Positions 4,406-27,019 of a stretch of 64,000 nt of DNA are shown piece by piece (within the stretch, counting starts at the first letter, position 1; every line of letters begins with the position of its first letter). Source of the stretch: Mesodorylaimus sp. YZB2_4 (Eukaryota; Nematoda; Enoplea; Dorylaimida; Dorylaimidae); assembly GCA_030248295.1 (NCBI GenBank), contig JASANH010001229.1, positions 32,024-96,023 of the forward strand, given 5' to 3'. The notes beneath the pieces are model-generated. The model was not told the origin of the DNA. It did not search any database and was given only the letters and a program-made list of their open reading frames with translations. Both the position numbers and the translations under genes were made by a program.

Positions 4406-4412
4406 AGTAGAC

Positions 4413-4655: not shown

Positions 4656-5048
4656 TTAAGATCAGCGCTTTCGTCTACACAACACACTTCGATAAAGTAT
4701 GGCTAAAAAAATTGAAACATTTTCTCAAAGAAAGATCAAGGCCGTCTCTTACGCAGTTCAGTACAACAGCACTGTCGAAGAAGCCTGGAAGTGCAAAGAC
4801 CTGATCACCCGATACTTGTGCACAATCTGCCTATTCGAAGAGAAAGGAGGGAAGACGTGCAAAGCTGGCCTGCGCCCGAAATCGAGTCAGCCGGACTACT
4901 TCGACGATTACAATGTCAAGTGCCAGAGCGTGGAATCCAGTGACATAGTGTCGTGCACTGACGGGGACTGCGAGAGGGAGTGCGGTCAACGCTGGCCATT
5001 GAGACGGGAGCTTAACTGCTCAGGCATCTGTGGTTTGACAAAGAGGTA

Positions 5049-5308
5049 GCCCTGAAATAGGCGGAATAGCCCTACATTGGAGAAGATACCGCGGGGAGCG
5101 GATAGCCTCGATAAGCCCCCCATAGGTGACCTGCCTGGGGGGGTTTAGGTGCCTGAGACATCAACCCGGCGGGTTTCAGCCTCGCCTGAAGGAGCGTATC
5201 GACTGGCCAACGAAGGCAAGCAAATACGCTGGTCCGTGTATAAGGCGGCCAGTCAAGGCAACCAGATACACTACCTTCTACACAGGCCAAACACACCTAC
5301 ATACTACA
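5049..5308 (+). repeat. Dispersed repeat inserted in vWA pseudogene
   Basis: The intact paralogue reads AAGAGGTACCCCACCAAC. Here about 260 bp separate AAGAGGTA from CCCCACCAAC, which gives near-exact insertion limits. The reverse complement matches 29800-30045 over most of its length, including CAAGGCAACCAGATACACTA-type words and a CCGCGGGGAGCGG-type word. A shorter related motif (CATCAACCC..GGGTT..AGTATCGA) recurs at 18320-18360. The family is dispersed and non-coding and I cannot assign its class. Confidence 0.6.
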
Positions 5309-5366
5309 CCCCACCAACATGCCACCACAGGAAATGGAGAACTGTCTGGACCGCATCGACTGCGAC

Positions 5367-6525
5367 TAGACCCCGGATCGGGTCAGGTACTTTCGGGTCG
5401 GGTCGGGTCGGGTCGGGTCAGCAAAATTTCGGGTCGGGTCGGGTCAAAATCGAGTCGGGTCACTTTTTTGAAAGATCGGGTCAAAGGGGTCAAAAATACA
5501 GAAATTTTGCAAGTTACTACTATTAGCAACTTGAGAAACCTTCTCATAGTTCTTTGACTCCAGGATTTGCAGTATATGCTTCATGAATGCATGCACAAAG
5601 TCTTGCATTCCACGTTCTCATTCTGCGTAACTTCCGACAATGTCACACAAATTGTAAGCTGTGAGAATGACCAATTTTTCTGAGTAATTTCTGCAAAGGG
5701 AAGGGTCCATATGTGAGAGTGCTCATAAACATTCTTTTCAACTCTGATGAATGAGTGGGACGAGCCATACTCTAACATAAGAAGGAGTTGATAACTTTTA
5801 GCAGGTCGTACGGGTAGCTATTCCTGAAAATTTGATTCCTGAATATGACAATCTTCCTCGGTATACCTGGCTGCAAGAGCAGTATAGTCTGTACCCAAAC
5901 ACCAAATATGTACCAATAATAGCCCCCTTAACCTCCATCCATGTTCCCATTGCAGAACACTTTGCTGTGTTCGAAAGTCCCTCACATCCCTCCATCAGTA
6001 GTGGAGGTTCTGACAGGAGCTAGTGTCCAGCACAATATGACTTTGTAAGCATTATCTTTTGTGAAGACCAGATGCAACTTTAGCCTGGGGCTCATATATA
6101 TTTAGGTATTTCTTTGTTTAACCCAGTTATGACAGAGTTGTCTCTATTTTTCACGCCTATTATTCGGATTGGTTAAATCTTGTCTCCAGTGGACAGACCC
6201 TAGTCGCTTTTAGATCTAAGGTTTTTGAAAAATTATTTGACCACTATTGTGGGGAATATGAAGGAACGTTATTGCATTTACTAAGGATAACTAGGGAATA
6301 ACAAAAGATGAAGATTCGCGTGCGTGAGATGTCTCCACCTCATATTTTCTCACAGTTACCTTTCCACCAACGCCACCACGTTCTGAGCATTTGTGAATGG
6401 TTTTTATCGCGCGGAACTTCAATTACTTATACCGAATTCGGGTCAACCCGACCCGAAATTTCGGGTCAGGGACTTTCGGGTCGGGTCGGGTCGGGTCGGG
6501 TTGACCCGACCTGATCCGGTGTCTA
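5367..6525. mobile_element. hAT-like non-autonomous element with 8-bp target duplication
   Basis: The direct repeat ACTGCGAC occurs at 5359-5366 and 6526-6533, and the intact paralogues have it once at the same codon. The ends are inverted: TAGACCCCGGATCGGGTCAG at the left, and the reverse complement of the right end reads TAGACACCGGATCAGGTCGG. Both ends carry subterminal GGGTC tandem arrays (5395-5462 and 6470-6505), inverted relative to each other. An 8-bp duplication with TAGA-type ends fits the hAT superfamily. No transposase ORF is present, so it would depend on an enzyme encoded elsewhere. Confidence 0.8.
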
Positions 6526-6849
6526 ACTGCGACGCTTGTCCGACGAGGACTGTGAGGTCGAGTGGAGAAGATGTGAAGTCGATGATCGCGATCACGATGG
6601 ACATGTTGCTGATGGGCGAAGTGATCGTCGCCGTGGTCGTGATTATCTTGCTCCTCGTGGTCGTTATCGCTTTTATCGTCATCAAACGAAAATCTGCAGC
6701 CAAGAAGCGAGGAGAATATACTTAGATACATGTATATAGATATCTCGCGAACCAACCGTACGCGCGATAGTAAAGAGAAAAAGGCCGGTTCCTGCGTCCT
6801 AACATGATAACTAGCTTAGCGAATGTAAAGTATCATTTATCATCCTTCT

Positions 6850-7105
6850 TCACATCACTCGCGGCTGCTCTCCAATCGCGCCACGGAGCGCCCCTGCGTA
6901 ATCTTACGGCATTGTGAAGTCGAGATCTTACTCATTCAAGCAGGCTAATCTGCAAGCGCATAATCCAGTGCGGTCATCTTACATCTCGCCTTCGCGCTTC
7001 ATGCTGCGTTCTTCGAGTCGGCCTCCGAAAACTGGATTTGGCAAGTTATTCCGTGAGTCATTCTGAGTGAGCATCGATTCTTAAAGCTCAAAATCGGGAA
7101 TCACA
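6850..7105 (+). promoter_or_regulatory. Duplicated 5' flank of vWA-like gene copy 2
   Basis: The sequence upstream of the start at 7106 is recognisably homologous to 15490-15725 upstream of the other intact copy. Shared words include CATTGTGAAG/CATTGTAAAG, TCATTCAAGCAGGCTAATCTG-like and CTCGCCTTCGCGCTTCA-like tracts. The duplication therefore included the promoter and 5' UTR. No TATA box or start site can be placed with confidence. Confidence 0.45.
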
Positions 7106-8479
7106 ATGCCTAAAGGCAAGTCGTCAGCTTTGTCTATCCTGATCAGTTCAGTGTTGGTCCTCCCCGTCGCCTCGTTCGCGTTCACTTCCAACATCAGGAA
7201 GGTCAGTGGCAAGATTGACATTGCCTTTATTCTCCATACTCCGGTGTACCGATCGGTGTATTCTGACCTCAAGGCCACGTTCGCCCGCTTGCCAGACTAC
7301 ATCGACTTGGGCGAGAACAAGGTCAAAGTAGTCATATTGGATGTGGGACTTGATGAATTCACAACAATGCCAAAGGTTTGGTTCAATCTTTCCGGTGATA
7401 TCAGAGAATACAAGGCTTTTGTCAATAATTTCCCAACCTACCATTGTCGCCTTTACGCCAAACACGGTTATGGACTGAAATACGTGCAAGAGAATGTCTT
7501 CGACTTCAGCAACAAGGAGCGGGCGAAACTGTTTTTTGTTTTCTTGGACAGTGTGGTGGCTCTAGAGTCACTTGTTCTACAAGAAGTCCGCCAAGTTTAT
7601 GAAAAGGGTGCCTTCGTCTACACAACGTACTTTGAAATTTCAAGCCTATCAGAAAACTTCCTTGAAACCTTTTCTCCAAAAAGGATGAGGGCCGTCTCCT
7701 ACAACGTTCTGTATGGCAACACTGTCGAAGAAGCCTGGAAGTTCAGAGACCTGATCACCCGAGACTTGTGCACGATTTGCCAATTCGAAGAGAAAGGAGG
7801 GAAGACGTGCAAACCTGGCTTGCGCCCGAAATCGAGTCAACCAGACTACTTCGACGACGGCAATGCCAAGTGCCAGAGCGTGGTCCCCAGTGACATCGTG
7901 ACATGCACTGACGAGGACTGCGAGAAAGAATGCGATCAACGCTGGCCTTGGAAACGAGAGCCCAACTGCTCTGGTATATGCGGTGTGATAAAGAGGTACC
8001 CCACCAACATGCCACCACTGGGGATGGAGAACTGTCTGGACCGCATCGACTGCGACCCTTGTCCGACGAGGACTGTGAGGACGAGTGGGGAAAATGCGAA
8101 GTCGAAGATCACGATGGACATGTTGCTGATCGGAGTGATCGTCGCCTTGGTGGTCATCATCTTGCTCCTCTTGGCCGTTATCATGTTGATCGTTATCAAG
8201 AGAAAATCTACGGCCAAGAAGCGAGTAGGAACGACAAGAGAAAAGTCCCAGTTGTTTTCGGACAAAACCGAACGTGTTATGAAGTCAGATAGAAGGAGCG
8301 CTCAAACAAGCCAGAAATCCGGCCGACCTACTAATGGAAGCAGGACGATGCAATCGACAAAAAAGAGCGGCACGCCCATGACGCCTAGCCTGAAGTCGAC
8401 GACAGCTGGTTTCAACTACATGAAATCTTGTCCAAAGTCGACGAAGCCGAATGCTGTGTCCATCAACGCGAAGAAATGA
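7106..8479 (+). CDS. vWA-like type I membrane protein, copy 2 (intact)
   Basis: A single exon encodes 457 residues from an ATG at 7106. An N-terminal hydrophobic stretch (residues about 8-26) looks like a signal peptide. Residues about 35-215 have vWA fold texture: DIAFILHTP at the first strand, KVKVVILDVG at the second and AKLFFVFLD at a later one. The usual DxSxS metal site is absent (HTPVY instead). Residues about 218-325 are Cys-rich, starting at DLCTIC. A long transmembrane helix starts near 337, and a basic, Ser/Thr-rich tail of about 90 residues follows. An extracellular ligand-binding or adhesion role at the cell surface is inferred from architecture only. The copy at 15726 is a close paralogue. 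I do not recognise a named family. Confidence 0.85.
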   Translation: MPKGKSSALSILISSVLVLPVASFAFTSNIRKVSGKIDIAFILHTPVYRSVYSDLKATFARLPDYIDLGENKVKVVILDVGLDEFTTMPKVWFNLSGDIREYKAFVNNFPTYHCRLYAKHGYGLKYVQENVFDFSNKERAKLFFVFLDSVVALESLVLQEVRQVYEKGAFVYTTYFEISSLSENFLETFSPKRMRAVSYNVLYGNTVEEAWKFRDLITRDLCTICQFEEKGGKTCKPGLRPKSSQPDYFDDGNAKCQSVVPSDIVTCTDEDCEKECDQRWPWKREPNCSGICGVIKRYPTNMPPLGMENCLDRIDCDPCPTRTVRTSGENAKSKITMDMLLIGVIVALVVIILLLLAVIMLIVIKRKSTAKKRVGTTREKSQLFSDKTERVMKSDRRSAQTSQKSGRPTNGSRTMQSTKKSGTPMTPSLKSTTAGFNYMKSCPKSTKPNAVSINAKK

Positions 8480-9402
8480 GAAAAAGGAAGTAAGCAAATG
8501 CTGAATCGTGCAAGATATGGTGTGGATTTTCAGTTTTACTAGCGTTATCTTCTCTTCTCGCTCATTTTTGTTTTACATAGGTGTATTCACATTCCATGCT
8601 AGATTTTTGTACTGCTGACTACTAACAAGCTTCTTGTGATGAAAATTTGCTCACAAATGACTGTTTGATTTGTCACGACGATCGCGGGACACAGCAGTGT
8701 AACTTTGATGACTTGATTCACCTACAGTATTGTCTTCTTCTGGACCCCCCCCCCCCCCCACTACCTTCTCATGCCTAACATCGTCAGTGGGAAAAAGTGA
8801 CCTCGTCATCTTACAGATGGGACAATGAAAGCAAAACTAGACGCTGATATACGAGCGAACATCAACTAGCAACCAAAGGCGAACCTCAAGCACATTTTCT
8901 CAGAGGTCAGGCACTGCCTATGACTGATTGGAGCTGAAAGAATGTCAATTACATCAATTATCAATCAAACAATTACCTGTAAAACTCGAAAATTTTCCGC
9001 TTAGCGATAGTTTTGCGTGTCTCCATAGACAAAATGTCCCTTGTGTGCATTATATTGGAACAACTTATTTATTCGTTCATTCTTTATTTTAAATGACTTT
9101 GCAAACCAAGAATGGAGATGTAAGTGGTGAGGGTCTGGAGACTGATGCTGCTATACCAGGGCCACGCCCCCACTTCTTTGGCAAACAGCTCATCCCACTG
9201 TTAGCTCTAATCCTTTTCCCACTACTGTAGTTTAGCGCCATCGCCCGCAGAATCTCCTCTCCCGCTGCTCCTTCTGTGGCCACTGAATTTTTACACCGCT
9301 ATCTCATAGGGTTTTTCTAAAGACATAGTTGTCGCCCCCGCCATCTAATAAATCGTGTTACACAAGACGATAGTCTCACAAGTCACTCATCGTCAGCGCA
9401 TC
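8480..9402. other. 3' flank with homopolymer, no gene
   Basis: The first 170 bp resemble the 3' flank of the copy at 15726 (TCTCCTCTTCTCGCTCATTTTTGTTT-like words), so the duplication extends past the stop. A C15 run lies at 8745-8759. Nothing coding was recognised in the rest. Confidence 0.4.
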
Positions 9403-9702
9403 CTACTTTAACCTTTTTGTTTTATGTTCCTGCACCTGCTTGTGCTTTTGCTGCAGTAATGTCATGCATCTTTGATGGCACTGCATATACTGTAGCTTAT
9501 GGGATATAGAACTCAACGCGCCCATCTCTTGCCACGGTGTTGCAGATATACACAGCACATCATCGATGTTGACTTTCTGCGCACATTCCTCTACGCTTTT
9601 GCATCTCGTTTTCTGGTGTGAATGCGATGAGGACATTTCAACTGCCCGTTCAGATGAGCTGTATCCTGGCGCTTTTTGTCCATCAAATGTGTTATCAGAC
9701 AT
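9403..9702 (-). CDS. Unrecognised small ORF (99 aa)
   Basis: A minus-strand ORF starts at an ATG (9702) with MSDNTFDGQ and runs to KTKRLK and a stop. Its composition is protein-like: a polar N-terminus, CKSVEECAQK and MQCHQRCMTLLQQKHKQ blocks with spaced cysteines, and a basic C-terminal helix. No family is recognised and no intron is needed. It lies between a vWA copy and a lectin copy with no equivalent at the second cassette. It could be a genuine small gene, a terminal exon or chance. Confidence 0.3.
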   Translation of the reverse strand: MSDNTFDGQKAPGYSSSERAVEMSSSHSHQKTRCKSVEECAQKVNIDDVLCISATPWQEMGALSSISHKLQYMQCHQRCMTLLQQKHKQVQEHKTKRLK

Positions 9703-10588
9703 GCAGCTCAAGGCAAAAGCTTCAGTCTTAGCATGCTAGCGCTCTTACATCGTGCGAGCTTCTGCACGGATACTCTTGAATGAATTTATCTCAGCAGTGA
9801 CTGCATCACATCTTTGGCCGAGATCTCATTTTTGAAAATGCAACTTGAGAATCATGCAATCTTGGAGCCAACTTTAGCAGCTGGCGGATTTGTGATTTTG
9901 ATAAATAAAATAAAAGGTTTTCCAGTTCTTGGACGTTTATAGTGTGTTTCAGGGGTTTGCAGTTTTAAAATTTGCTTGCTTTTATTGTTTTAAACTTGCG
10001 CTCTGTGACACTTGGGATTGGCAGCTAAGTCTATTTGGCAGAGCAAAATAAGTCAGCTAGTCAGTCAGTCAGTACATTTATTGACGAGTATTTGCAGTGT
10101 TTAAGCATTAAAGCGTTAAAAAGTGATGAAGACAATGTGATTCCGCAGTTTGACTGGATTTCGACAACCGCTCTCCAATCGATAATTTCCAACGTTTCAT
10201 GATCAGGTCGCCTGGTAGAATCTTCATATAGCTTACACGATTCCTCTAGACGGCCATCCAGCAGGTGTATAATTTATCCATTACCTCTGCTAGGACACAT
10301 CACATGCTCGGAGCATTTCTAGAGGACATATTTCTGCAATTTTTTAGCCAGTCCAGTCCATTGTTCCAGCCAATGATGTATGATGCTCTCAGCGAAGCTG
10401 CCCTAATGTGCATCTACGATTGGAACATGATCTTCGTAAATGCATCCATTTCGCTGACCACACTAATGGCGACCAAGAATAAGGATTACGAAAACACAAT
10501 TTCCTTTTCAAGAGATTTCTCATTTTCCAATGTTGCTTTTTCCAGTTCCATAGAGCGATCGTGATCTTCGCTGTGCCCCCTAGCCATC

Positions 10589-13082
10589 ATGCTTTATTTC
10601 ACCATGATGTTCATTTTTTCATTCCAAGTTTCCTTCCAAGTTTCAAATGCGCAAGGTTAGGAAATCTGTTCAAGCCAAAATAATATTATGGGCAGTAATT
10701 TTCCTAATTTAGCGTTACAATGTGACGAATCAGCATGCACGCGACTGAAAGGAGTCATCGACGGCGCGCGATGCTTTTTCATTGTAAATCAGAGGACGAG
10801 TTGGAAAGACGCGTGGAAAGTTTGCGCGGCGGAAGGTGGAATTTTTGCTCAGATTCATACTGATAGCGAGTTCGAGAAGATTAAGAAGATGCAAGAGGTC
10901 AAGAGCGTGGTGAAAGCGGCAAAAGGTGAGAACATATGAGTTATTTATGTCGTCTTTTAGAGAGAAAAGGCACAAGCGGCGTTTATCGCTCTGCAACGAG
11001 ATGCTGGCATCGGTGATCATCCATGCGCCGTTACTAATAGCACGACTTATTGGTACGACGGGCCAACCATAAAAAATGTCAATATGTCCGTTCAAAATAC
11101 GTGGATGCGAGGCTCTGTGTGTGGAGCATTTGATGCCACTGAGAATTGTATCGTGACATTTAGTGGAAATAAGAACTTTTACGACTTCTCGTGCGATTAC
11201 GTCTAGAAAGGTGTTGCCGTCGTTTGCCAATTAACAGGTGAGACACACTTTTATTTGAAAGATTTGAGAGAAGAGCGGAATGATAAATGCCCATACGCTT
11301 TTATCAATTCGGCGAAAGGTCTTATGGCTAGCTGCTGGATTTGCAACCCATGGTTTTTTATGAACTGCGCCTTCACATCAGCACAATGCGATCCTTATGC
11401 TTTGGACTAATAAAGGACGCCACTCAGGACATACTCGGGACAACGCTGAGTGAGATTAGAGCGACTGCAGAAGGTTTCGCAACAGATCTCTTGGAATGTC
11501 TTTTGGAAATTTGTGGCGCTCCAAGATACATCTTTCACAATATTCCAATCAAATACTCTAAGGTTGACTTACTTTAGCTCGCGGATGTAATAGATTATTC
11601 TCAGGAATAATTCGAAACAATTTTCTGGCAACAGAAGGTTGGTAGGTTAGCGGGTATACGAAGCTAGTTCTGCCGAAAATTATAGGGTCAAGGAATATTG
11701 CATGATGCTTCAGCGCACATAGAAGATCTTTTACGAAGTCGAGTGCGACATTGCTCAAAACTTTGTTGCCGCTCTATGTCAGTTTACTTGTGAGCCGCCT
11801 TGTCATTTTTCGAAATTGTGATCAGGCTGACACAATACGGTGTAGCTTCATATTCTGCACTGGTTCTTGCTCTTGACCCGCTCAGGAAATTACGTAGCAA
11901 CAGTTGACCGCCTTCATTCCTCTTCACCTAGTTTTGTCGCCGATTGTGCAGTGGAAGATAATGAATGAAATCGGCGACAAGAGAGGCACAGCTTGACGAT
12001 CAGATGACACCCCAATTTATCCGTATAAATACACAGGAACAGAGGACGACTGCTCTATCTGGTCTCCAAAAGATGTTATGACCGACCTGGAGCTCTCTAC
12101 CCATTCCTACCATCACCAGTGCACAACATAGCGCAAAGAGAACAGGTTTGAGACAAAGATATTATCGCCCTGGCATCTTCAAAGATCTGCACTTTGCCCT
12201 GTCTATCTCACCAAAGGGAAACCTGTCTCATTCGTACCAACTAGAAAGAAAAAGGATCACGAGAAAAACCTTTCTCGAAAAGCTTACAGCGGGATGAAGC
12301 TGCCACTAGGCATTTCTTCAGATGCCTAAGATCCACGACTCATGGTTAACTCGTTGTTGGTCGAACTCTTGGGTCCACAGACCCAACGCATGTTATAACA
12401 CAGGGCGAAACGGTTTTATCTGCATATCTCGACAACCAGCCATTATTTTGCAAAACCGTTTGGTAGTATCATAGGTTGATAGGTAGGACATGCTAGTACC
12501 AAAAATTATCGAGATCGATCAAGCGGTTCTCAAACGGCGGCCCGAAAACCCCAAAAAAGTGCCCAAGAACAATAATAACTTCAATTGAAACATGAATCGT
12601 ACGAAAGGAAGAACTATCTTCTATCACAGGCATCGTACAGTTGCTACTTGATGCTGCAAACAGTGAGACCAACTAGGGGTTAAGGAAAGAATGGAGGTAA
12701 AAGTCGTGTAGCTCTCAGCTTGCTTATTCGCGTTTGGTCTTAAACAATGGCTGCACCACCCCGAATCCTGCAGCAAGCCATGTACTGTGGAATATTTCAT
12801 AGCTAACTCCTAGTCATATTTTCAGTTCGTTCTGAACACTACACCATGACCAATGTGTGCATGACCGAAACGCCCATAGAAATAATGCCCGCAAGTCAGC
12901 CGGAAGAGTGTGCGCAAGTATGCTATCGGAGAACGTGGTGTCGAAGTTTTAATTTCATTCGCGGCATCAAGGGCTCTTCGTGCCAGCTCTTCTCCTGGTC
13001 AGCCTTGAACGTCACCTGCCCCAGAGGCCCCGAGACTAAGTCGGCCGATGCTGAATGTGTCCATTACAACTACGTCGCCTAG
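10589..13082 (+). pseudogene. C-type-lectin-like/PAN-apple protein, copy 1, with in-frame TAG
   Basis: Four exons align with the intact copy at 18766: 10589-10655 (signal peptide, MLYFTMMFIF), 10713-10909, 10961-11237 and 12826-13082, with phases 1, 0 and 1 matching. Exon 2 has lectin-like features: GARCFFIVNQRTSWKDAWKV, then C and AEGGIFAQIHT. Exon 3 has WYDGP and ends VVCQLT. Exon 4 is a PAN/apple-like Cys-rich module (CAQVCYRRTWCRSFNFIRG). An in-frame TAG at 11204-11206 falls just before the last lectin cysteine. Translation would stop after 169 of 265 residues, losing the apple module. It may be a recent pseudogene, a truncated lectin or a base error. A decayed extra lectin exon lies in the last intron. 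Carbohydrate binding is a family expectation, not shown. Confidence 0.7.
11590..11789 (+). pseudogene. Relic lectin exon 3
   Basis: The stretch ends CCGCTCTATGTCAGTTTACT then GTGAGC, closely matching the end of exon 3 of the intact copy (CCTTTGTGTCAGTTTACT then GTAAGC). Upstream codons resemble the lectin exon but contain stops. It sits inside the last intron of copy 1, so a partial local duplication of exon 3 has decayed there. Confidence 0.5.
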
Positions 13083-14006: not shown

Positions 14007-14250
14007 CAGGCCAACGTGCTTCTTTATCCACCATCTCTGACATGCCCCGCAATTAGTCAGAATTTCGTCTGGATAGCATAGATTTGTTCGATTTGAGCAA
14101 TTATGCTTTCAGTCTGTTCTCGCCAATAATGTATGATGTTCTCCCAGGGAAACTGTCCCGATGAACACTATCAATCTGATAGCGACCACCGTAGTGCACT
14201 GGCCAGACTTGTGTTTTCACCCTACGGTAGACTAACGATAAGACAATAAG
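14007..14250 (+). pseudogene. Orphan copy of the lectin 5' flank
   Basis: The block matches 21720-21900 over long stretches (CCAACGTGCTTC, CATCTCTGACATG, AATTAGTCAGAA, TGTATGATG-like words) and, less closely, 10350-10480 and 18540-18640 upstream of lectin copies 1 and 2. No lectin exons follow before the vWA gene at 15726, so it is a promoter-only remnant of another duplication. Confidence 0.5.
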
Positions 14251-15725: not shown

Positions 15726-17105
15726 ATGGCCATAGGCATTAATTCAGCTTTTTCTTGGCTGATCACTTGGATGTTGGTCATCGTCGTCTCCTCAGTCGTT
15801 GCTTTCACTTCCAAGATCGAAAAGCTCAGTGGCAAAATGGACATTGCGTTCATCCTCCAAACTCCGTATCCACACCAATTTCGTCACGTCAAGGCCACGT
15901 TCGCCCGCTTGCCAGAATACATTGACTTGGGCGAAAACAAGGTCAAAGTAGCCATATTCGATGTGGGACTTAATGCATCGGCAACAAAACCAAAAGTTTG
16001 GTTCAATCTTTCCGGTGATATCAGCGAATACAAGGCTTTCGTCAATAATTTCTCAGATTACAATTATCATGAAAACTTTAAACACGGTTTTGGACTAAGA
16101 TATGTGCGAGAGAGCGTGTTCGATTTCAGCAATAAGGAGCGGGCTAAGCTGATATTTGTTTTCTTGGACGACATGGTGGCCTCAGAATCACATGCCCTAG
16201 AACAGGTCCGCCAGGTTTATGAGATGGGTGCTTTCGTCTATACAACATACTCCAGTAAAATGAAGCCAAAGCTAACAAAAAACTTCCTTGAAACTTTTTC
16301 TCCAAGGAGGATCAAGGTCGTCTCCTACAACGTTCTGTACAACAGCACTGTCAAAGAAGCCTGGAAGTTCAGAGACCTGATCACCCGAGACTTGTGCACG
16401 ATTTGCCGATTCCAAGGCAAAGGAGGGAAGATGTGCAAACCTGACCTGCGCCCGAAATTGAGTCAGCCCGACTACTTCGACGACGGCAATTCCAAGTGCC
16501 AGAGCGTGGCCCCCAGTGACATCGTGTCATGCACTAACAAAAACTGTGAGAAGGAGTGCGATCAACGCTGGCCTTGGAGGCGGGAGCCCAACTGCTCAGG
16601 CATCTGTGGTGTGATAAAGAGGTACCCCACCAGCATGCCCCCTCAGGGGATGGAGAACTGTCTGGACCGCATCGACTGCGACTCTTGTCCGACCAGGACT
16701 GCGAGGATGAGTGGAGAAAATGTGGAGTCGAAGATCACGATCACGATGGACATGTTGCTGATCGGAGTGGTCGTCGCCTTGGTGGTCATCATCTTGCTCC
16801 TCTTGGCCGTTCTCGTTTTGATCGTTATCAAGAGAAAATCTACGGCCAAGAAGCGAGGAGAAACGACAAGAGAAAAGTCCCAGTTGTTTTCGGACAAAAC
16901 CAAATGTGTCATGAAGTCAGATAGAAAGGGCGCTCAAGCAAGCGAGAAATCTGACCGGACGATCAATGGAAGCAGGACGATGCGATCGACAAAACAAAGC
17001 AGCTCGCCGATGACGCCTAGCCTGAAGTCGACGACTGCCAGTTCCAAATACATGAAACCTTGTTCAAAGTCGACGAATGCTTTCTCCATCAAAGCGAAGA
17101 AATGA
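15726..17105 (+). CDS. vWA-like type I membrane protein, copy 3 (intact)
   Basis: A single exon encodes 459 residues from the ATG at 15726; the reading frame extends upstream only through a GTG. Order of parts: signal peptide (residues about 8-27), vWA-like region with DIAFILQTP and KLIFVFLDD strands, Cys-rich region beginning DLCTIC, transmembrane helix from about 341, and a basic Ser/Thr-rich tail containing SSPMTPSLKSTTA. As in copy 2, the DxSxS metal motif is missing. Divergence from copy 2 is concentrated around residues 40-60 and 110-195 of the vWA region; the membrane and tail parts are nearly the same. That pattern would suit a variable ligand-facing domain, but this is inference. Confidence 0.85.
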   Translation: MAIGINSAFSWLITWMLVIVVSSVVAFTSKIEKLSGKMDIAFILQTPYPHQFRHVKATFARLPEYIDLGENKVKVAIFDVGLNASATKPKVWFNLSGDISEYKAFVNNFSDYNYHENFKHGFGLRYVRESVFDFSNKERAKLIFVFLDDMVASESHALEQVRQVYEMGAFVYTTYSSKMKPKLTKNFLETFSPRRIKVVSYNVLYNSTVKEAWKFRDLITRDLCTICRFQGKGGKMCKPDLRPKLSQPDYFDDGNSKCQSVAPSDIVSCTNKNCEKECDQRWPWRREPNCSGICGVIKRYPTSMPPQGMENCLDRIDCDSCPTRTARMSGENVESKITITMDMLLIGVVVALVVIILLLLAVLVLIVIKRKSTAKKRGETTREKSQLFSDKTKCVMKSDRKGAQASEKSDRTINGSRTMRSTKQSSSPMTPSLKSTTASSKYMKPCSKSTNAFSIKAKK

Positions 17106-18214: not shown

Positions 18215-18395
18215 CCAAGCCTGGCAGGCGTAGGAAGGAGGCGGCCGACCGAAGTCGGCGGGACAAACACTCCGACTGGAGCAGGATAGTCTTGCGACTA
18301 TACCTACGGCTGAAACATCAACCCGAGGGGTTGACGTTTCCCAGCCGGGGGAGAGTATCGATTACTCTCTCCCACTCGCCATGGCCTACCAGGCG
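18215..18395 (+). repeat. Dispersed repeat, copy related to 54428-54560
   Basis: Shared order of words with 54428-54560: GACTGGAGCA, GCGACTA, CCTACGGCTGAAA.ATCAA, then CAGCC..G and CTCTCTCCCACTC. Part of it (CATCAACCCG.GGGTT) also matches 5158-5180. It is a dispersed non-coding family of unknown class. Confidence 0.5.
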
Positions 18396-18765: not shown

Positions 18766-20062
18766 ATGCTATATTGGACTGGACTGTTCATTTTGTCATG
18801 CTCTTTCCAAATTTCAAAATCGCAAAGTAAGCAAACAAGTTTAGCCTGAGCACTGACATGGGCAGCAACTAAACTGCTGTAGATCAATGCAACGTGATCA
18901 AATGCATACTCTTGGGAGGAGTCGTGGACGGCGCGCGATGCTTTTTCATCGAAAAACAGACGACAACGACTTGGAGCAATGCTTGGAATATTTGTGAGGC
19001 GAAAGGCGGAACTCTGGCTCAGATTCATACTCAAAGCGAGTTCGACAAGATTTGGGAGATGGGAGAGGTCAAAAAATCAGTAAACACTGGGCAGAAAAAT
19101 AACCCTTTAGCGTTCGAGTTTTCAGAGAGTAGGATCGAAGGAAATTCACATCGCTTTGAAACGAGACCCTGACAACGGCACTGTGGAAAATGCATGCTCC
19201 ATAACCAATACCACGACCTTTTGGTTCGACGGACCGGCCACAAAAAATGTTCGACTGCCAGTTAAAAATACATGGATTCGAAACGAGTGCGGAGGGGGCC
19301 ATAGCCCCTATGAATTTTGCGTTACGTTGTCTCATACATGGGTTCCGCTCAATGATATCGTGTGCGATCGGAATGATTTCGCTGTCCCTTTGTGTCAGTT
19401 TACTGGTAAGCCACCTGGTCGTTTTTTGAAATCGTTCATCGGGTCGACTAACAGGGTGTACGTACAGTATTGTACATGTCCATATGTCGTACAGGCGCTT
19501 ACTCCTTGATCTCTAGAGGAGGGGGTACACAGCAGGATATAGTGTCGAGCTCACTGCTTGTATTCCTAGCTTATAGTTGTCTAGATAGACTTTAGGAACT
19601 AAAGAGCGCAATGGAGGCTTTTGAGCTAATTTTATTAGGTCTTTCAGACTCAATTCCTGCTCCAATAAACTCAATTGAAAGTGTAGGTCACAGGTTACAA
19701 TATGTGGGGGCGGCTTGCTTAGGTGGCTGGTCTCACCATCGTAATACCAAGCCTGGCATGACATTTTTCGATATAGTTTATGGCTAACTTCTTTTAATCT
19801 TTAAGTTCGTTCTGAACACTACACCATGACCAACGTTTGCATGGCCGAAACGCCCATCGAAACATTGCTCGCCATGGAGCCGGAAGATTGTGCACAAGCG
19901 TGCTCTAGGAAAACGTGGTGTCGAAGTTTCAATTTCATTCGAGGCAAGGAGGAGGATTCATGCCAGCTCTTTTCGTGGTCAGCCTTGAATGTCACGTGCC
20001 CAAAATGCCCAAGGACTAAGCTGGCCAATTTTGGATGTGTCCACTACAGCTACGTCCCCTAG
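18766..20062 (+). CDS. Secreted C-type-lectin-like/PAN-apple protein, copy 2 (intact)
   Basis: Exons 18766-18826, 18883-19079, 19126-19405 and 19806-20062 join in frame (phases 1, 0, 1) to give 264 residues. Exon 1 encodes a signal peptide. Exons 2-3 encode a lectin-like domain: GARCFFIEKQ, TWSNAWNICEAKGGTLAQIH, FWFDGP and a final VPLCQF. Exon 4 is a PAN/apple-like module with CAQACSRKTWCRSFNF and a cysteine pair near the end. No transmembrane segment follows, so secretion is likely. The second intron is only 46 nt. The last acceptor reads TTTAAG rather than CAG or TAG, although the exon itself is intact. Family members bind sugars or proteins; the ligand here is unknown. It sits downstream of vWA copy 3, as copy 1 sits downstream of vWA copy 2. 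Confidence 0.75.
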
Positions 20063-21039
20063 AATGCAGGCCAAAAACTAATATCCGACAAAGGATAGTC
20101 ATTCGCATTTTTGCGTGGCGTGCTAAGGCATTTTATAGAATATAACTTACAGGCTGTCTAAATGTCTAATACGAACTCATAATTCTATCTTATTTTACGC
20201 AGTAAATATGTACTCCTTCAGTTTGCCCTCCTAGGAGCTACTGTACTTCCTAGTAGCTTATTCATTCCCAATTCAAATGGTTCCTCGGGGTAATGCGCGC
20301 TACGACAGCACAGTACATATATAGTACGGCCAACCCCACATACGTACTGTACACCATGTCATGATGTTCAGACAGAGAACAGGACAATGTACCGTACATA
20401 CTGCAGGCAAGAAACTACAGTATGCTTATTGCAGTGTGCAGGTACTGCAAGGATGCCCGCGCATATTTGGAGAATAGATACCACTTCCTGAATACGGTAT
20501 CTGTGACGGCATCTGTTTTCATGCCCAAGTGCAATTCAGGGGCATAGTCCTAACTGAAGTACCTGATTTCCATCGCATGATCGACCTTTTCCTGTAAGTA
20601 AATTAGAAACCATGTATGCATTTTCTTTAAATGCTTCTGACAATCCGATTTTTTCCGTGACAAAAACTGGAAATCTCACAGTCAAAATGCTAAAATGACA
20701 TTCGCATGTGTTCAACACTCGCAGCGTCTAACAAGAACCTGACATGGCGCAGATATTGATCGATTTCCGTAATTAAAGGCAGTATAGTCCGATTCGCAGG
20801 GGGCAGCGCACGTATTCTAACCAATACAACTTTTGCATCAACAATCTGCTGATCGACTCTGACATACTGTACCTTTGATCTCTTTTACTTGGTTCTTCGC
20901 CGCTCTGGTATTCTGACCCTGGCTGCATTGTGCGCCACTTGAAGCCACAGAGAAATGTACGAGGATTGAGAGCTGGATGCGGCTTCCACAAATCATGATT
21001 AAGGGTTTTGGTACCCCTCAGCATGATCTGTGGTAAGAG
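20063..21039. other. 3' flank of lectin copy 2
   Basis: No gene seen. Segment 20090-20510 is homologous to 25620-26020 (for example AACCTGCAATATGCT-like and TACTGCAAGG.TG.CCGCGC words), which identifies the latter as flank of a lost lectin copy. Confidence 0.45.
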
Positions 21040-21190
21040 GGTTTTACATATAGTCGGTCAAGTGAGTCAGTCGGTCACCTCTCAAGATCAGGCATACATT
21101 AGACGGCTGCCTGAGACAGTCGGTCGTGTGAGAAAGACGGCCAAGTGAGGCCGGCGGCCACCCGAGACAGTCGACCAGGTGATTCATAAT
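21040..21190 (+). repeat. Dispersed GGTCA/GTCGGTC-rich repeat
   Basis: The core CAGTCGGTCACCTCTCAAGA..CAGGCATACATTA is matched in reverse complement at about 55815-55865. Repeated words of the type GTGAG-CAGTCGGTC recur inside each copy. No coding capacity was seen. Confidence 0.5.
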
Positions 21191-21714
21191 CGATGAGGGG
21201 CCCATCAATTTAGAAAATCCTCGGTGCTACCCGTCAACCGAGCTAAGTATTCGTTTTTAGCAAACCATCGACGACTGAAGCATGGCAATGTCAGCTGGGG
21301 GAAGTAGGGGACACGGCGATCCATGTATCCAGTAACCCAACATTGGCTGTCCTCCACAAGGGAAAGAGTAGCCAGCATTATGAACGCTTGAACAACATCT
21401 ACGATTGCAGCAAATGTGGGAAATCAAAATGAAAGCAGGAAGCATTTTTCGTATCTTTCTTGTGAGCCAGAAGCTTGGACTGCACGCCAGATGCGCTGTC
21501 CCTGGTGGAAAAGATCACGGCTGATTTACTTTGGAAAGTGATACCGGGTTGGCAAGAGATGTTCGCCGATGTTAAATGGCTATATTTCGCGGGTTTTTCC
21601 AACTTTCTGAACAAGACCTGACCATCGTACAGTACGGTGTCTGCATGTATCTATAATATACTTTGTATCTACAGTAAATGGTCAACATATCTACATATAC
21701 AGTACCATCTACAT

Positions 21715-22065
21715 GGTCAACGTGCTTCGTCCTCCTCCATCTCTGACATGTCCTCGAAATTAGTCAGAACTGTATTCTGGATAGGATGAATTTGTTTAAT
21801 TTGCGCCGTTATGCTTTTGATCCATTGCTCCCTCCAATTATGTGCAATGGTCTCCTAGGGACACTGTATGATGGACACCATCCATCGTAACACGACCTCT
21901 TTCTGTAATTGCACTAGCTCCAAGGGAGACTAAGACAAAGGGTTGACAAAACGCAAATTAGTTAATTTAACGTAACAGTGATCGTGATTTTCGCTGTAAG
22001 TGCTTTCCAAGTTTCAAATGCGCAAAAGTAAGCTCAGGACCAGATTCAGGCCAAATAAAGTTTCT
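21715..22065 (+). pseudogene. Lectin copy 3 relic: 5' flank and signal-peptide exon
   Basis: The block matches the lectin 5' flank at 14007 and continues into a sequence resembling exon 1 of copy 1: GATCGTGATTTTCGCTGT, then TTTCCAAGTTTCAAATGCGC followed by a GTAAGC donor-like site. The start codon region is deleted. Its 3' parts appear 3 kb away at 25265 and 25620, so the copy was dismembered by insertions. Confidence 0.55.
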
Positions 22066-22113
22066 GAACTTTCGAAATAAACCCTTCAAGCACGTTCGAA
22101 AAGGGTCTGCTAT

Positions 22114-22380
22114 GTGACTGGGTCTCCTGTGACCATCTTTGAGCACTGGCGGATAAGACTATATGTAGGGAGACCTGCCAGGTCGCTCCAAGAAAATTCC
22201 ATGGTCCATCTATATATGGCTGACCCCCTAGAGTACTTGCCTTTGCATTGGCTGACGGATGATTTGAATCGCCGCTGGATGAGGAGTGTGCTGGCCATGC
22301 ACAAGGATGGACTCAAGGACGTAATTGATGCCGTCGAATCGACTAAACCCGCCACTTTTCAAATGGAACCGTCAATGTGA
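22114..22380 (+). other. Unrecognised open frame
   Basis: An open frame with protein-like texture (WRIRLYVGRPARSL, LHWLTDDLNRRWMRSVLAMH) runs to a stop at 22380. The only internal ATG is at 22201. It lies between the split parts of lectin copy 3 and may be transposon-derived, perhaps a fragment of a reverse transcriptase or hydrolase. No family is recognised. Confidence 0.2.
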
Positions 22381-22954
22381 AGTGAAGCACACGCTTGGTC
22401 CAATGGCATGGGGAAGAAATCGATAGCGGGGTATCGATCGCAATCACTTTATTTGCCCTGACGTTTTGTAGTTATTTTTGGAATAGGGTCTATGTAAAAT
22501 GCGTGCGCGTTCAGTCTATTTTAGTCTTTAGAATCTTGTGCCTAAAGTCTGTGTACAGTAAAGCGCAAGAGTGACTGAAGTTTTATTTTCCTGCCGATTA
22601 TACAATATGATTTGGCGATCGAGTCTTGTCACCATAGCCGCACTGGTGCGCGAATTGTGCTGCAAACGTGTAGGATGCACGATTGAGTGCATTCTGACTC
22701 TTCCCGCTATGCAATGATCCCAATGAGAAACGTGCTCAATGTGCAACCGGATGGGAAACGTTTTTATCAAACCAGAAAATCCTGTCCAAAACACGGCCAC
22801 CATTATCAAAAAAGTTATCAAAACAAATTTTTTAATTACTACCTGTTACTAAATGCCAAAAAAGAAAAACTCCAACCCAGCGAATGAAATGTATTATCAA
22901 ATTTAGTGGCGCCGCTCATGCATTGAATCTCCCCTCTCAGGTCTTTCACATCGT

Positions 22955-23990
22955 TTAGGCGTCTGTTCCGTGAAAGATTTCGGCAAGCATTGCTTCGTAA
23001 ATCGGCATCACGATCTGGAAAAGAGGGAAAAATGCAGAACCGATTCTTTTTGTGCATGCTAGCATGATAAACCAGAACTCAAGAGACTCAAAGTTCCCGA
23101 AGGCGATTTGCGAACTTCCCAACGAAATCTAAGATATAAGCAATTATCCTAATCTTTCAAGGCTCAAACTAGGTCCAATCCCACATACTGTATATCCCTT
23201 GGATTCCCACGTGCATGTCTGTCATTGGACCCAAGTGACAATGTTCAGTTAAGGACCTATGACTGCTGGAGAAATGCTACGACTGATATACCCATGGCCC
23301 ATAAGTACCTGATTGAATTCTTTTCGGAATGCCACCACGGCTTCGTCCAGCGTCTCTTTGCGCACAGAACTGTTCAAAATATCGTATTGCAGTTGCAATA
23401 AGGCGCCGATCGGCACAGACGAACTACGAGAGCCAGCTGGAATTTCGGCGTACATCTTCTTTATTGCTAGTGCTCGTGTGATACTCCTCCCAGCTATGGG
23501 TGGAGGTACCTACACGCGTACGTGGTTCGAATCACCCCTGCGCGGCCCCTACCGAAACGGACACCAATAACGATAGCTCTTTATTGGGCCGACGGGTGGA
23601 CACCTCCACAAGTATAAGACAGGCCAAGAGGCGAGCACTGTGAATAGGGAGAGGCGGTTACGAGATACCCAACCGCTCGTGAGGAAATACGTAGACGGAC
23701 TGAAGGCAGTCCTCACGGCCAGGACGGCCAGGACATCGGGCGACCAGTCCTAAAACTAGTCTAGATTAGATCCAGGCTCGCTCTCCTTGCTCCAAGACAA
23801 GAGAGGACGAGCGAAGGAAGTATTCACGAGTTGCACCAGACAACTTGTGCCGGGCGGTTAAAAACCGGTAGAGACGAACCCTCATCAATAGATGCGGGTT
23901 ACACTCGTACATTTCCGCGAACGATTGGGTTAACCTGCTTGATGAGCGAGCCCATTTTTTGCAGAATGACCGAATCGTGATTTGCCAATC
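22955..23990 (-). CDS. Possible small multi-exon gene, unrecognised
   Basis: Three minus-strand blocks have matching phases. 23990-23911 follows a TTTCAG acceptor, reads DSVILQKMGSLIKQVNPIVR and ends at a GTACGA donor. 23455-23309 begins MYAEIPAGS after an AG and ends KEFNQ at a GTACTT donor. 23014-22955 follows TTTTCCAG and ends HGTDA and a stop. The joined protein is short, helical and polar. An upstream ATG exon starting MSETHDLDE at 24279 is attractive, but no phase-compatible donor was found. Family unknown. The donors are weak, so this is a tentative model. Confidence 0.35.
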
Positions 23991-24114
23991 CTGAAACGAG
24001 TCAGCCTCAACCTGAAGCGAAGAGCCCGAAAATTCTGCGGAGCGTTCTTCAGAAGGCTCTCTAGGAACAACAAAAAACGAGGCTGGGAAATCAGACGAAG
24101 CTCCAAAGGAGGTA

Positions 24115-24192
24115 CCAGGGAATCCCCGGGAGGTCCCAGGGAATCCCCGGGAGGTCCCAGGGAATCCCCGGGAGGTCCCAGGGAATCCCCGG
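24115..24192. repeat. 21-bp tandem repeat (about 3.7 units)
   Basis: The unit CCAGGGAATCCCCGGGAGGT plus one base repeats almost perfectly. Because 21 is a multiple of three, several frames stay open across it, which yields spurious repeat peptides such as RGFPGTS or PGIPWDL. Confidence 0.85.
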
Positions 24193-24445
24193 AACGGACA
24201 TCGAGCCTGTCGTGACCATTTTGATGCCGTCATCGTCCACGGTAACAGATGTTTCGTCTAAATCGTGTGTCTCGGACATAGCTTTCGTCTCTTCTTTTAA
24301 ATGTATGCGGCCAATGTTGATAAGAAACGCAGAAATATGACAAACAGCTCACGGGAACTGACGAGTCCAACAGTGGCGCTCCGTATCTTGTTCAACACAC
24401 CATGATAGTGTAGAGGCATTGAAGGCCAGAAAACAGGTATGTCCT

Positions 24446-24536
24446 ATAATTTGGATATATGCAAAGCAGGGAGTTGCGCAGGGCCTAGCCCGAGAACAGA
24501 TACGTCTGATAATTTGGATATATGCAAAGCAGGGAA
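24446..24536 (+). repeat. 63-bp tandem duplication
   Basis: The 27-bp word beginning ATAATTTGGATATATGCAAA occurs at 24446 and 24509, each followed by GCAGGGA, giving a 63-bp period with two units. Confidence 0.7.
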
Positions 24537-25264
24537 AATGCATAGGACCTGCTCTAGCAGAATATAAACGGATCTAAACTAGTCTTATGCGCCCAGGCAT
24601 CCTCAGGGCGGGTTGAAAAGTCAGTCCACAACAAGAACCTGATTGTAGTTTGTTGTGCAAGCGGAACCTGCAAAATATTGGACCCGTCTGGCCAGGTGAT
24701 CAGCAGTGATCAGGGCCTAAAGTCCTGCGGGTATTTTGAATTCTTGTGTGGTGAAGGTAGAGTGCTTCTGAAACTAGGTTTTCAGATTTTGGGCTCCGTG
24801 TTCCAACACTCGGAATGGGGGTTTTTCCACAAAACCCTGACAAGGCAGGAAGATCTCAGAAACTTTGCGGGGATTTCGGGTGCTGACCATGCTGACCAGT
24901 TGGCCCAATATTATGCGGAAGCTTTTTTGGCGCCGAAACAAATTACAGTAATTGTTTATATCAAGTTTGACTAAGGTTGGCAAGGCTCCCTTGTGAGCTG
25001 TTGAAGCCTAAATGCAAAAACTGTGGTATCAGAATGAGGAAAAGTGGAGATTTTTGCTCGCCAAGCGTTCATATTTATATACGAAAACTGCGTCATTTAG
25101 TTGACTGAACTGACACTAAATCCTTTTTTTCAAAACTGTATCAACGCTAGGCTGGTGTGGGACAATGTCTGGGCCTGGGCCACTCCGTATCTAATCCGTA
25201 TAACTCCACTCCGTCCTGCGTGACGAAGAATATTTTTTCAGTCAACTTTTCGTGCTTTGTTTAG
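24537..25264. other. No gene recognised
   Basis: A 99-codon open frame at 24678-24974 lacks any domain or splice support and is not called. The rest is non-coding. Confidence 0.35.
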
Positions 25265-25313
25265 TTCGTTCAGAACACTTCACCATGTCCAACGAGTGCA
25301 TGACCGAAATTCC
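25265..25313 (+). pseudogene. Lectin copy 3 relic: start of PAN/apple exon
   Basis: After a TTTAG acceptor the sequence TTCGTTCAGAACACTTCACC and the following codons (for S-N-E-C-M-T-E-I-P) match the start of exon 4 of the lectin genes. The match stops abruptly at the beginning of a long inverted repeat, so the exon was interrupted by an insertion or rearrangement. Confidence 0.65.
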
Positions 25314-25580
25314 GACCATGGTTGGTCTACATGACAAGGTCGATTATACGAGAGAAGACGGCTACTGTACTTATTATTAGGACTACGCACTAGACTTGAA
25401 CTCCGCCAGCTTCGACTGAACCACCGAACCAGGACCGAACCAGGCCAGGACCAGCGTTTTGGAGCTGAACTAGGACCGAACCAGGACTAAACAAGGACCG
25501 CTGGCATGCCGCATCATTTCTTACTGACTGACAGTCAAAAATAGAAGTTAAAATGGCTTCTGGTGAAAGGCTCATTCAGA
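25314..25580 (+). repeat. Left arm of long inverted repeat
   Basis: It begins CATGGTTGGTCTACATGACA and pairs, as reverse complement, with 27020-27313 over about 265 bp, with mismatches and small indels. Inside the arm is a short array of ACCGAACCAGG-type words. It probably forms the end of a DNA transposon or a foldback element. Confidence 0.75.
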
Positions 25581-25619
25581 ATCTGGAACCAAAAGGTGAC
25601 AGTGGTGACTGATAGAAGA

Positions 25620-26020
25620 TGAGCATCCGCTTTTGTGTGTTGATTTGTTAAGAAAGCCCGTACGCAGTTACACAAGATATAACTCACAGTATGCCATGCA
25701 TAACTCACAATATGAACCTACATACATACACTCGTCCGTCTCATTTTATTCTTTGCAGTAAATCGGTTTTTATTTAGTTTTCCCTCCCACAGTAGGAGCC
25801 CTAATAATCCCCCCCCCCCCCCATAGTTTTCCCGTGGTAGTGAGGGCTACCTGTATAACGACAGTATATAGTATGGATACTCTGGCATGCTGGTTGGACA
25901 GAGAACATGTCAATGAAAGTAAGAAACCGCAATATGCTCATTGCAGTGTTCCTACATCTACGTACTGCAAGGGTGTCCGCGCCTATTCCTGAATAGGGTG
26001 CGTCTCTGCCATCATGTGTA
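25620..26020 (+). pseudogene. Lectin copy 3 relic: 3' flank
   Basis: Homologous to 20090-20510 downstream of lectin copy 2. It includes a GACAGAGAACA word followed by a CTCATTGCAGTGT-type word and TACTGCAAGG.TGTCCGCGCC. A C14 run lies at 25809-25822. It contains no exon. Confidence 0.5.
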
Positions 26021-26864: not shown

Positions 26865-27019
26865 ACAGCGCGGAATGAAGCGGCCGAACCAGGATCTTGA
26901 TTCGGGCCGAAATAAACCACAGATTTCTAGTCAGGCTAGACCAGAAAAGTTTTTAGAAAAGCTTAAGAGCTTGTTCGATTGCAGCGAAGATCAAGAGACG
27001 CTCATAATAATTTCTAGTT

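What the first reader, a model, noticed from the sequence alone, without database searches (positions are those of the whole stretch)
4656..26020. Interleaved tandem cluster of vWA-like membrane proteins and secreted lectin/apple proteins
Two unrelated gene families alternate: vWA relic, vWA, lectin, lectin 5'-flank relic, vWA, lectin, lectin relic. Flanks are duplicated along with the genes, so a two-gene cassette seems to have expanded. Pairing a membrane protein with an extracellular recognition protein suggests a shared recognition or defence system. Duplication and relics are seen directly; the joint role is inference.
Basis: partly seen in the sequence, partly recalled or inferred. Interest (0 to 1): 0.72.

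Follow-up and report, generated by a model that had tools for sequence, protein, structure and literature searches.

The report
Swapped-stalk vWA receptors beside lectin genes
In an unnamed animal genome, membrane proteins with varied outer heads copy their stalks from one another and lie beside unrelated secreted lectin genes, so the head-stalk mosaic is the interesting part and the proposed two-gene partnership is probably a local accident.

Summary
The anatomy is real: vWA relic, vWA (V1), lectin (L1), lectin-flank relic, vWA (V2), lectin (L2), lectin relic, on one strand. The partnership is not supported. V and lectin (CTLD-PAN) are two large families; V loci lie within 10 kb of a close lectin relative only here, on homologous contig C533, and at two distant V genes (capped lists). 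A broader PAN set gives a marginal excess in 3 of 6 settings (P 0.023-0.044, uncorrected). On C533 the alternation breaks.

V genes are intronless, single-pass membrane proteins: a vWA-like head without the MIDAS motif (0 of 23), a stalk with 10 invariant Cys, a TM and a basic tail. Head and stalk histories conflict: heads join V1 with V1' and V2 with V2'; stalks join V0 with V1 and V1' with V2'; each rejects the other by AU test. The stalk is therefore gene-converted between neighbours while heads diverge, as in fish protocadherin clusters (PMC1852091). Recognition or adhesion is the likeliest role, by inference. Species unidentified. L1 is broken; L2 is open in my model.

The parts
4637..5052 (+). 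V relic, piece 1: end of head and first part of Cys stalk; the head upstream is missing, while C533 keeps head remnants
   Evidence: tblastn with V2, 72.8% aa over 4711-5052 and 45% over 4637-4729; blastn 80.6-80.8%; C533:18941-19531
5053..5307 (.). insertion of about 255 bp inside the V relic, absent from the C533 counterpart (ends approximate)
5308..5366 (+). V relic, piece 2 (stalk)
   Evidence: tblastn 76% aa; blastn 91.7-94.9%
5367..6525 (.). hAT-like DNA transposon insertion (1159 bp) in the V relic: ends TAGACCCCGGATC / GATCCGGTGTCTA, 8-bp target-site duplication ACTGCGAC, GGGTC-rich termini; empty site on C533
   Evidence: sequence read directly; class recalled from target-site length and terminal inverted repeats, no transposase tested
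6526..6722 (+). V relic, piece 3 (end of stalk, TM)
   Evidence: tblastn 71% aa
7106..8479 (+). V1: intronless 457-aa membrane protein (hydrophobic start, vWA-like head without MIDAS, Cys-rich stalk, TM, basic tail)
   Evidence: ORF; 75% identical to V2; alignment of 23 members; TM and hydrophobic start
10589..11237 (+). L1 exons 1-3 (signal peptide, CTLD) in my gene model; CTLD exon carries an in-frame TAG, so L1 is a pseudogene as assembled
   Evidence: frames (1 TAG inside)
11693..11819 (+). tail of a second CTLD exon, 84% identical over 43 bp to the end of L2 exon 3: trace of another lectin copy, suggesting L1 is a fusion
   Evidence: blastn; tblastn E 0.004
12826..13082 (+). L1 PAN (apple) exon
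   Evidence: Pfam PAN_1 35.3 bits, cut-off 21.4
14009..14176 (+). lectin 5'-flank relic 1
   Evidence: 75.7% identical to 21715-21886; K80 0.27
15726..17105 (+). V2: intronless 459-aa membrane protein of the same family
   Evidence: Pfam VWA 27.1 bits, cut-off 23.8
18766..19405 (+). L2 exons 1-3 (signal peptide, CTLD), open in my gene model; the 46-bp second intron is placed by eye
   Evidence: frames; CTLD PF00059 only 17.3 bits, below its cut-off 22.6
19806..20062 (+). L2 PAN exon
   Evidence: Pfam PAN_1 27.7 bits in the spliced model
21715..22040 (+). lectin relic 3: 5' flank and signal-peptide exon remnant
   Evidence: blastn; exon 1 remnant by eye
25260..25314 (+). PAN exon remnant, possibly of the same lectin relic
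   Evidence: 88% DNA over 50 bp; 76% over 17 aa

Best explanation
The vWA-like genes belong to a large family (46 merged loci at 103 bits or more, 73 with distant relatives) of intronless cell-surface proteins: a MIDAS-less vWA head on a conserved Cys-rich stalk, one membrane span and a basic tail. Neighbouring copies exchange the stalk (in some clusters also TM and tail) by gene conversion, while heads keep separate histories and diverge. The array thus presents many different heads on a common base. The heads most likely bind protein or glycan ligands without a metal site, in adhesion or self/non-self recognition. The neighbouring CTLD-PAN lectins are an independent family of secreted proteins; their interleaving comes from local duplication of one segment, probably a V with its lectin, not from a shared pathway. 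Shown: gene structure, families, head/stalk conflict, local duplication, weak or no linkage elsewhere. Inferred: surface location, ligand binding, recognition role.
For: Head/stalk conflict: in the head tree (24 rows) V1+V1' (100/100) and V2+V2' (100/99.8) are clades, and V0+V1 or V1'+V2' are rejected (p-AU 2e-5, 3e-78). In the stalk tree (25 rows) V1'+V2' (100/98.7) and V0+V1 (91/93.8) are clades, and V1+V1' or V2+V2' are rejected (4.8e-5, 0.0075).

Synonymous sites agree: V0-V1 head pS 0.499, stalk 0.112 with pN 0.000; V1-V1' head 0.091, stalk 0.243. It recurs on C11: C11_236-C11_548 head pS 0.307, stalk+TM+tail 0.035, p 2e-9. Head against stalk alone: 3 of 276 pairs pass Bonferroni. Head against stalk+TM+tail: 14 of 276, all with the membrane-proximal part closer, 7 within and 7 between clusters; pairs share rows. 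GC3 is higher in stalk than head (0.71 against 0.53; C348 0.67/0.55; C11 0.68/0.60), the sign used for fugu protocadherins (PMC1852091 section 7).

Heads evolve fast: dN/dS 0.62, 0.72, 0.38 and 1.10 in four close pairs that I chose. Architecture: 10 invariant Cys; hydrophobic start and TM in 23 of 23. Fold: collagen VI alpha-3 vWA E 6e-5; Pfam VWA in 9 of 23 at E<=0.01. Independence from lectins.
Against: No ligand, expression or localisation data. Head dN/dS is below 1 in three of the four pairs, so diversifying selection is not shown; relaxed constraint is possible, and V2' is frameshifted. Stalk pS is lower than head pS even between clusters (150 of 197 pairs, medians 0.628 and 0.690), so codon bias or saturation contributes to the synonymous contrast. 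The AU result does not depend on that, but its clades were chosen after seeing the pairwise values, and V0+V1 in the stalk tree is not a starred clade. Whether C533 is the other haplotype or a duplicated block is open, which changes whether V1-V1' are alleles. The weak PAN linkage excess in 3 of 6 broad settings leaves some room for a functional link.
Confidence: 0.6

Rival explanations
1. Ordinary birth-and-death of a structural or adhesive surface protein family (epidermal, egg coat, gut lining). Gene conversion is a by-product of tandem arrangement and head divergence is relaxed constraint, with no recognition role.
For: Many relics and broken copies on C318 and C533; head dN/dS below 1 in 3 of 4 pairs; stalk pS below head pS even between clusters; neighbouring tandem genes convert generally (recalled).
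Against: In the pairs with a clear signal the closeness is confined to the membrane-proximal part, and the stalk keeps 10 invariant cysteines, so the split follows the domains.
Confidence: 0.27
2. One reading: V and lectin form a functional two-gene cassette, membrane receptor plus secreted lectin, that expanded as a unit.
For: V-L-relic occurs twice in one order and strand with similar divergence of V head (pS 0.347), PAN exon (0.331) and flank relics (K80 0.27); V1-L1 is kept on C533; weak excess of V near the broader PAN set in 3 of 6 settings (P 0.023-0.044).
Against: 21 of 32 V contigs carry no close PAN hit (capped list); no enrichment with the close lectin set in 6 of 6 settings (P 0.105-0.693); V0, Vx' and V2' have no lectin beside them in the stretches read, except that Vx' follows L1'; L1 broken on both contigs.
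Confidence: 0.08
3. The mosaics are assembly artefacts: divergent haplotypes or repeats mis-joined within V genes.
For: C533 and C653 look like uncollapsed second copies of parts of C318 (mostly 84-94%), and highly similar stalks are a place for mis-joins.
Against: Same pattern on C11 between genes 312 kb apart (C11_236 and C11_548) with scattered, not zero, differences; the conflict involves genes on two contigs; a stretch of the window outside the cluster (60300-63300) has one match only.
Confidence: 0.05

Closest known systems
Clustered protocadherins of fish (regional gene conversion; PMC1852091, passages and section 7 read)
   Same: Tandem intronless ectodomain+TM units; diverse N-terminal recognition part; membrane-proximal part homogenised by gene conversion within a subcluster but different between subclusters; raised GC3 in the converted part.
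   Different: No cadherin repeats; a vWA head and a Cys stalk; conversion here is weaker (fugu 3' parts above 99% identical); each V open frame carries its own tail; short single-domain head.
Vertebrate paired receptors (Siglec-11/16, CEACAM, CD300; seen as titles and abstract starts in the listing only)
   Same: Recognition receptors shaped by gene conversion between related paralogs.
   Different: In Siglec-11/16 the extracellular domain is the similar part, the opposite of V; no ITIM- or ITAM-like motif in the tails of 23 of 23 V proteins (motif patterns recalled).
vWA/integrin I-type domains, e.g. collagen VI alpha-3 (PDB 9han)
   Same: Head profile matches the vWA domain, E 6e-5.
   Different: MIDAS DxSxS absent in 23 of 23 members, so metal-dependent ligand binding is unlikely.
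C-type lectin-like domain plus PAN/apple domain secreted proteins (the L family)
   Same: L2: PAN_1 above cut-off; CTLD similarity to DEC-205 (LY75), tetranectin and CLEC5A.
   Different: CTLD below Pfam cut-off (17.3 against 22.6 bits); no EPN, QPD or WND motif in the L2 model (motifs recalled).

Membership tests
vWA domain family (PF00092) | Profile match above curated cut-off | tested here: met
   V2 27.1 bits against cut-off 23.8; V1 has no VWA match at E<=1; 9 of 23 members match at E<=0.01
vWA domain family (PF00092) | MIDAS metal site DxSxS | tested here: not met
   0 of 23 members carry it at the start of the head
Clustered protocadherins | Cadherin repeats | tested here: not met
   No cadherin-repeat family in the Pfam tables (one search shows 25 of 27 families); 'Protocadherin' PF08374 (11 of 23) and 'Cadherin_C_2' (V1, stretch 345-398, the TM region) match weakly
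Clustered protocadherins | Diverse N-terminal part, gene-converted membrane-proximal part | tested here: met
   Reciprocal AU rejections; synonymous sites. This is resemblance in mode, not membership
Anthrax-toxin-receptor-like (vWA + TM) proteins | Intact MIDAS and extracellular Anth_Ig domain | tested here: not met
   MIDAS absent; no Anth_Ig match listed (25 of 27 families shown). Definition recalled
C-type lectins (PF00059) | Profile match above cut-off | tested here: inconclusive
   L2 17.3 bits, cut-off 22.6, E 0.008; phmmer finds CTLD structures, best E 2.3e-4
PAN/apple (PF00024) | Profile match above cut-off | tested here: met
   L1 exon 35.3 bits, L2 model 27.7 bits, cut-off 21.4
Functional V-lectin cassette | Conserved adjacency beyond one locus | tested here: not met
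   Close lectin set: 1 independent locus within 5 kb, expected 0.65; broader set: 4, expected 1.23, P 0.037 uncorrected; 3 of 12 settings below 0.05. Own genome only
Functional V-lectin cassette | Co-expression or physical interaction | not testable with these tools
   No RNA-seq or protein data available

The most novel reading that the evidence does not exclude
The V family is a germline-diversified self/non-self or microbe recognition system of an invertebrate: MIDAS-less vWA heads as the variable recognition unit, renewed by selection and head-stalk recombination, on an interchangeable stalk-TM-tail chassis kept uniform within each array by gene conversion. Contig C533 would then be a structurally different receptor haplotype of the same locus.
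Probability: 0.2. Interest if true: 0.8.

Novelty: new variant of a known kind. Interest (0 to 1): 0.47.

Why it matters
If the reading is right, an animal lineage uses the vWA fold, stripped of its metal site, as a variable head on a common membrane base, and it reached by a separate route the arrangement known from protocadherin clusters. That gives a concrete, testable set of genes (23 open members among the 30 loci read, several arrays, two divergent contigs of one locus) for asking whether invertebrates diversify surface recognition by head retention and stalk conversion. It also shows that the striking alternation seen by eye is probably a local accident.

Tried and rejected
Joint V-lectin system: tested by genome-wide positions, by V, PAN and CTLD profiles on the flanks of 30 V loci and 30 PAN loci (only C533 loci L021 and L060 hold both, but flanks were 1.5 kb, so the window's own pairs were out of reach), and by gene order on C533. 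Not supported; the marginal excess with the broad PAN set is reported. Caveats: hit lists are capped, and merging at 2.5 kb joins neighbouring V genes (the V relic and V1 count as one).

Single cassette duplication: neither excluded nor shown. V heads, PAN exon and flank relics agree in divergence, but the lectin 5' flank (K80 0.59) and CTLD (pS 0.45 and 0.57; CTLD against V head p 0.014, all lectin sites against V head p 0.085) are older, and the V-L spacer and the long lectin intron are not alignable. A fused L1 would explain this: L1 and L2 CTLDs are only 40% identical while L2's is 59% identical to one on C134, and a second CTLD tail lies at 11693-11819.

Relatives elsewhere: none in viral contigs (34 pattern matches, none confirmed) or genome contigs (71, none confirmed); these are viral and prokaryotic, so this says little about animals.

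Species: not identified. COX1 and SSU rRNA searches did not complete. Animal origin is inferred from LIM, ESCO zinc-finger, ANF_receptor and Lig_chan matches in the window (the last two just below their cut-offs).

Is C533 a haplotig? Open. For: colinear blocks of 84-96% and a 94% copy of 26174-29034 on C653. Against or neutral: the C318 22.0-26.2 kb block (91-92%) sits elsewhere in C533's order, V2-V2' DNA is only 82% identical, and 60300-63300 has no second copy.

Papers: seven searches were answered. PMC1852091 was read as passages and section 7; all others as listings and abstract starts only. None of the papers listed (15 of 23, 12 of 61 and 12 of 97 shown) appears by title or abstract start to describe this vWA-stalk family.
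Full report
WHERE IT IS. The window is C318:32024-96023 of an unnamed 145-Mb genome in 1067 contigs. It is an animal, judged from LIM and ESCO zinc-finger matches and from weaker ANF_receptor and Lig_chan matches in the window. I could not identify the species: searches for COX1 and SSU rRNA did not complete.

OBSERVATION. V1 and V2 are open single-exon genes of 457 and 459 codons, 75% identical in protein. L2 is open in my four-exon model, whose splice sites were placed by eye; L1 has an in-frame TAG in its CTLD. The V relic lacks its head, and it is cut by an insertion of about 255 bp and by a 1159-bp hAT-like element with an 8-bp target duplication; C533 shows both empty sites. Upstream of the window lies a further open V gene, V0, at C318:19960-21249, with a shorter start than V2.

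WHAT V IS. Of the 30 V loci cut out, 23 gave an open frame over 380 aa. In 23 of 23 there is a hydrophobic start, a strongly hydrophobic 19-residue span and a tail with 20-33% Lys/Arg, and in 0 of 23 an ITIM- or ITAM-like motif in the tail; 6 of 23 have a Thr-rich stretch before the span. The stalk has 10 invariant and 2 nearly invariant cysteines. Pfam VWA is above its cut-off for V2, absent for V1 at E<=1, and matches 9 of 23 members at E<=0.01; a profile of the 23 finds collagen VI alpha-3 in the PDB at E 6e-5. The metal-site motif DxSxS is absent in 23 of 23. The own-genome search gives 99 matches, merged to 73 loci on 32 contigs, 46 loci at 103 bits or more.

WHAT L IS. A secreted CTLD-PAN protein by my model. 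The PAN exon has 150 matches (only 150 of 455 candidates scored), 149 loci on 62 contigs. A CTLD lies in the same locus in 24 of 30 PAN loci examined. With the L1 PAN exon as query, L1' on C533 is nearest (86-88% in two pieces), then L2 (73%), then others up to 66%. With the L2 CTLD exon as query the nearest is on C134 (59%); L1 is at 40%, rank 21 of 148. With a second CTLD tail at 11693-11819, L1 is best read as a fusion of two lectin copies.

LINKAGE. V and close PAN relatives lie within 5 kb only on C318 and C533, and within 10 kb also on C72 and C462, where V is a distant member; 11 contigs carry both families at any distance. Counting C318 and C533 as one: 1 locus within 5 kb against 0.65 expected, and 3 within 10 kb against 1.13 (P 0.105). 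Adding the broader Pfam PAN_1 hits brings in C1, C5 and C141: 4 against 1.23 at 5 kb (P 0.037), 6 against 2.16 at 10 kb (P 0.023), 6 against 3.65 at 20 kb (P 0.16). With V at 103 bits or more the broad set gives P 0.044, 0.157 and 0.404, the close set 0.335-0.693. Twelve combinations were computed without correction, and the PAN lists are capped. I read this as little or no linkage.

SECOND COPY OF THE LOCUS. C533:11.5-21.2 kb, in reverse, matches C318 34.5-45.2 kb in blocks of 84-96%: V relic', V1', L1'. It then has a truncated Vx', a frameshifted V2' and a block 91-92% identical to C318 22.0-26.2 kb. No L2 counterpart was seen in the stretch read (C533:3001-23000). So the alternation is not kept. 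C533 may be the other haplotype or a duplicated block. A 94% copy of 26174-29034 on C653 favours haplotypes; the moved block, the 82% identity of V2-V2' and the single match of 60300-63300 leave it open.

THE MOSAIC. Compare heads (169 codons of V2) and stalks (103 codons). By head, V1 pairs with V1' (pS 0.091) and V2 with V2' (0.088). By stalk these pairs are far apart (0.243, 0.301), while V0-V1 (0.112, no amino-acid change) and V1'-V2' (0.118) are close although their heads are far (0.499, 0.340). Trees agree, and each domain rejects the other's pairs by AU test at 2e-5, 3e-78, 4.8e-5 and 0.0075. The clades were named after seeing the distances, which weakens the p-values formally, but the conflict runs both ways. 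In the wider family 3 of 276 pairs pass Bonferroni for head against stalk, and 14 of 276 for head against stalk+TM+tail, all with the membrane-proximal part closer. These pairs share genes; 7 are within a cluster and 7 between, and between clusters the stalk is also the closer part in 150 of 197 pairs, so codon bias or saturation contributes. The clearest within-cluster case is C11_236-C11_548 (0.307 against 0.035). The reverse also occurs: C11_508-C11_228 have near-identical heads (9 synonymous differences in 106 sites) but stalk pS 0.180. GC3 is 0.53 in heads and 0.71 in stalks of the V cluster. This is the pattern, weaker in degree, that the fugu protocadherin paper describes: divergent N-terminal parts, homogenised membrane-proximal parts, raised GC3 (PMC1852091 section 7).

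HOW IT MOST LIKELY WORKS. Shown: tandem duplication, conversion of the base, retention and divergence of heads. Inferred: proteins sit on the cell surface and the heads contact ligands without a metal site; the common base keeps anchoring and signalling alike while heads vary. Head dN/dS in four close pairs that I chose is 0.62, 0.72, 0.38 and 1.10, fast but not proof of positive selection.

HOW THE INTERLEAVING AROSE. V flanks (K80 0.26, 0.34), V head (pS 0.347), PAN exon (pS 0.331) and the two flank relics (K80 0.27) fit one duplication of a V-lectin-relic segment; the lectin 5' flank (0.59) and CTLD do not, as expected if L1 is a fusion; the V-L spacer is no longer alignable.

VERDICT. Observation confirmed, partnership not supported, and a different feature found: head/stalk mosaic evolution in a MIDAS-less vWA membrane protein family. 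It works like clustered protocadherins but is not a member of that family. No relatives were found in the viral and prokaryotic collections, and no paper in the seven search listings appears, by title and abstract start, to describe it.

Noticed in passing
window 5367-6525: hAT-like 1159-bp element with GGGTC-rich ends and 8-bp target duplication ACTGCGAC, present on C318 and absent at the matching site of C533: an insertion difference between the two copies of the locus.
   Followed up: partly
window 3249-4439, - strand: Pieces of a PIF/Harbinger-type transposase: DDE_Tnp_4 match at 3249-3602, E 1.1e-12, with adjoining open frames at 3556-3945 and 4098-4439 that match no transposase model; the type is recalled.
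   Followed up: no
window 26174-29034; C653:about 2.7-5.5 kb: Ionotropic-receptor-like gene (27650-28981) has a 94% copy with its upstream DNA on contig C653; similarity stops at 29034.
   Followed up: partly
C11:236488 and C11:548552: V genes 312 kb apart share nearly identical stalk, TM and tail (synonymous divergence 0.035) but their heads differ at 27% of nonsynonymous sites.
   Followed up: partly
window 30708-30991 (query 3059-3342): A repeat of about 280 bp with at least 35 other copies in the genome at 78-95% identity (capped), probably a short mobile element.
   Followed up: no
C141:254-256 kb, C1:1413-1416 kb, C5:1159-1163 kb: Distant V relatives (28-35% identity) within 1-3 kb of a Pfam PAN_1 hit; could be PAN + vWA in one gene or a weak real linkage.
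   Followed up: partly
window 18253-18381, 20965-21121, 50722-50880, 54256-54552, 56190-56357: Dispersed repeats shared between the cluster and the far end of the window, in both orientations.
   Followed up: no
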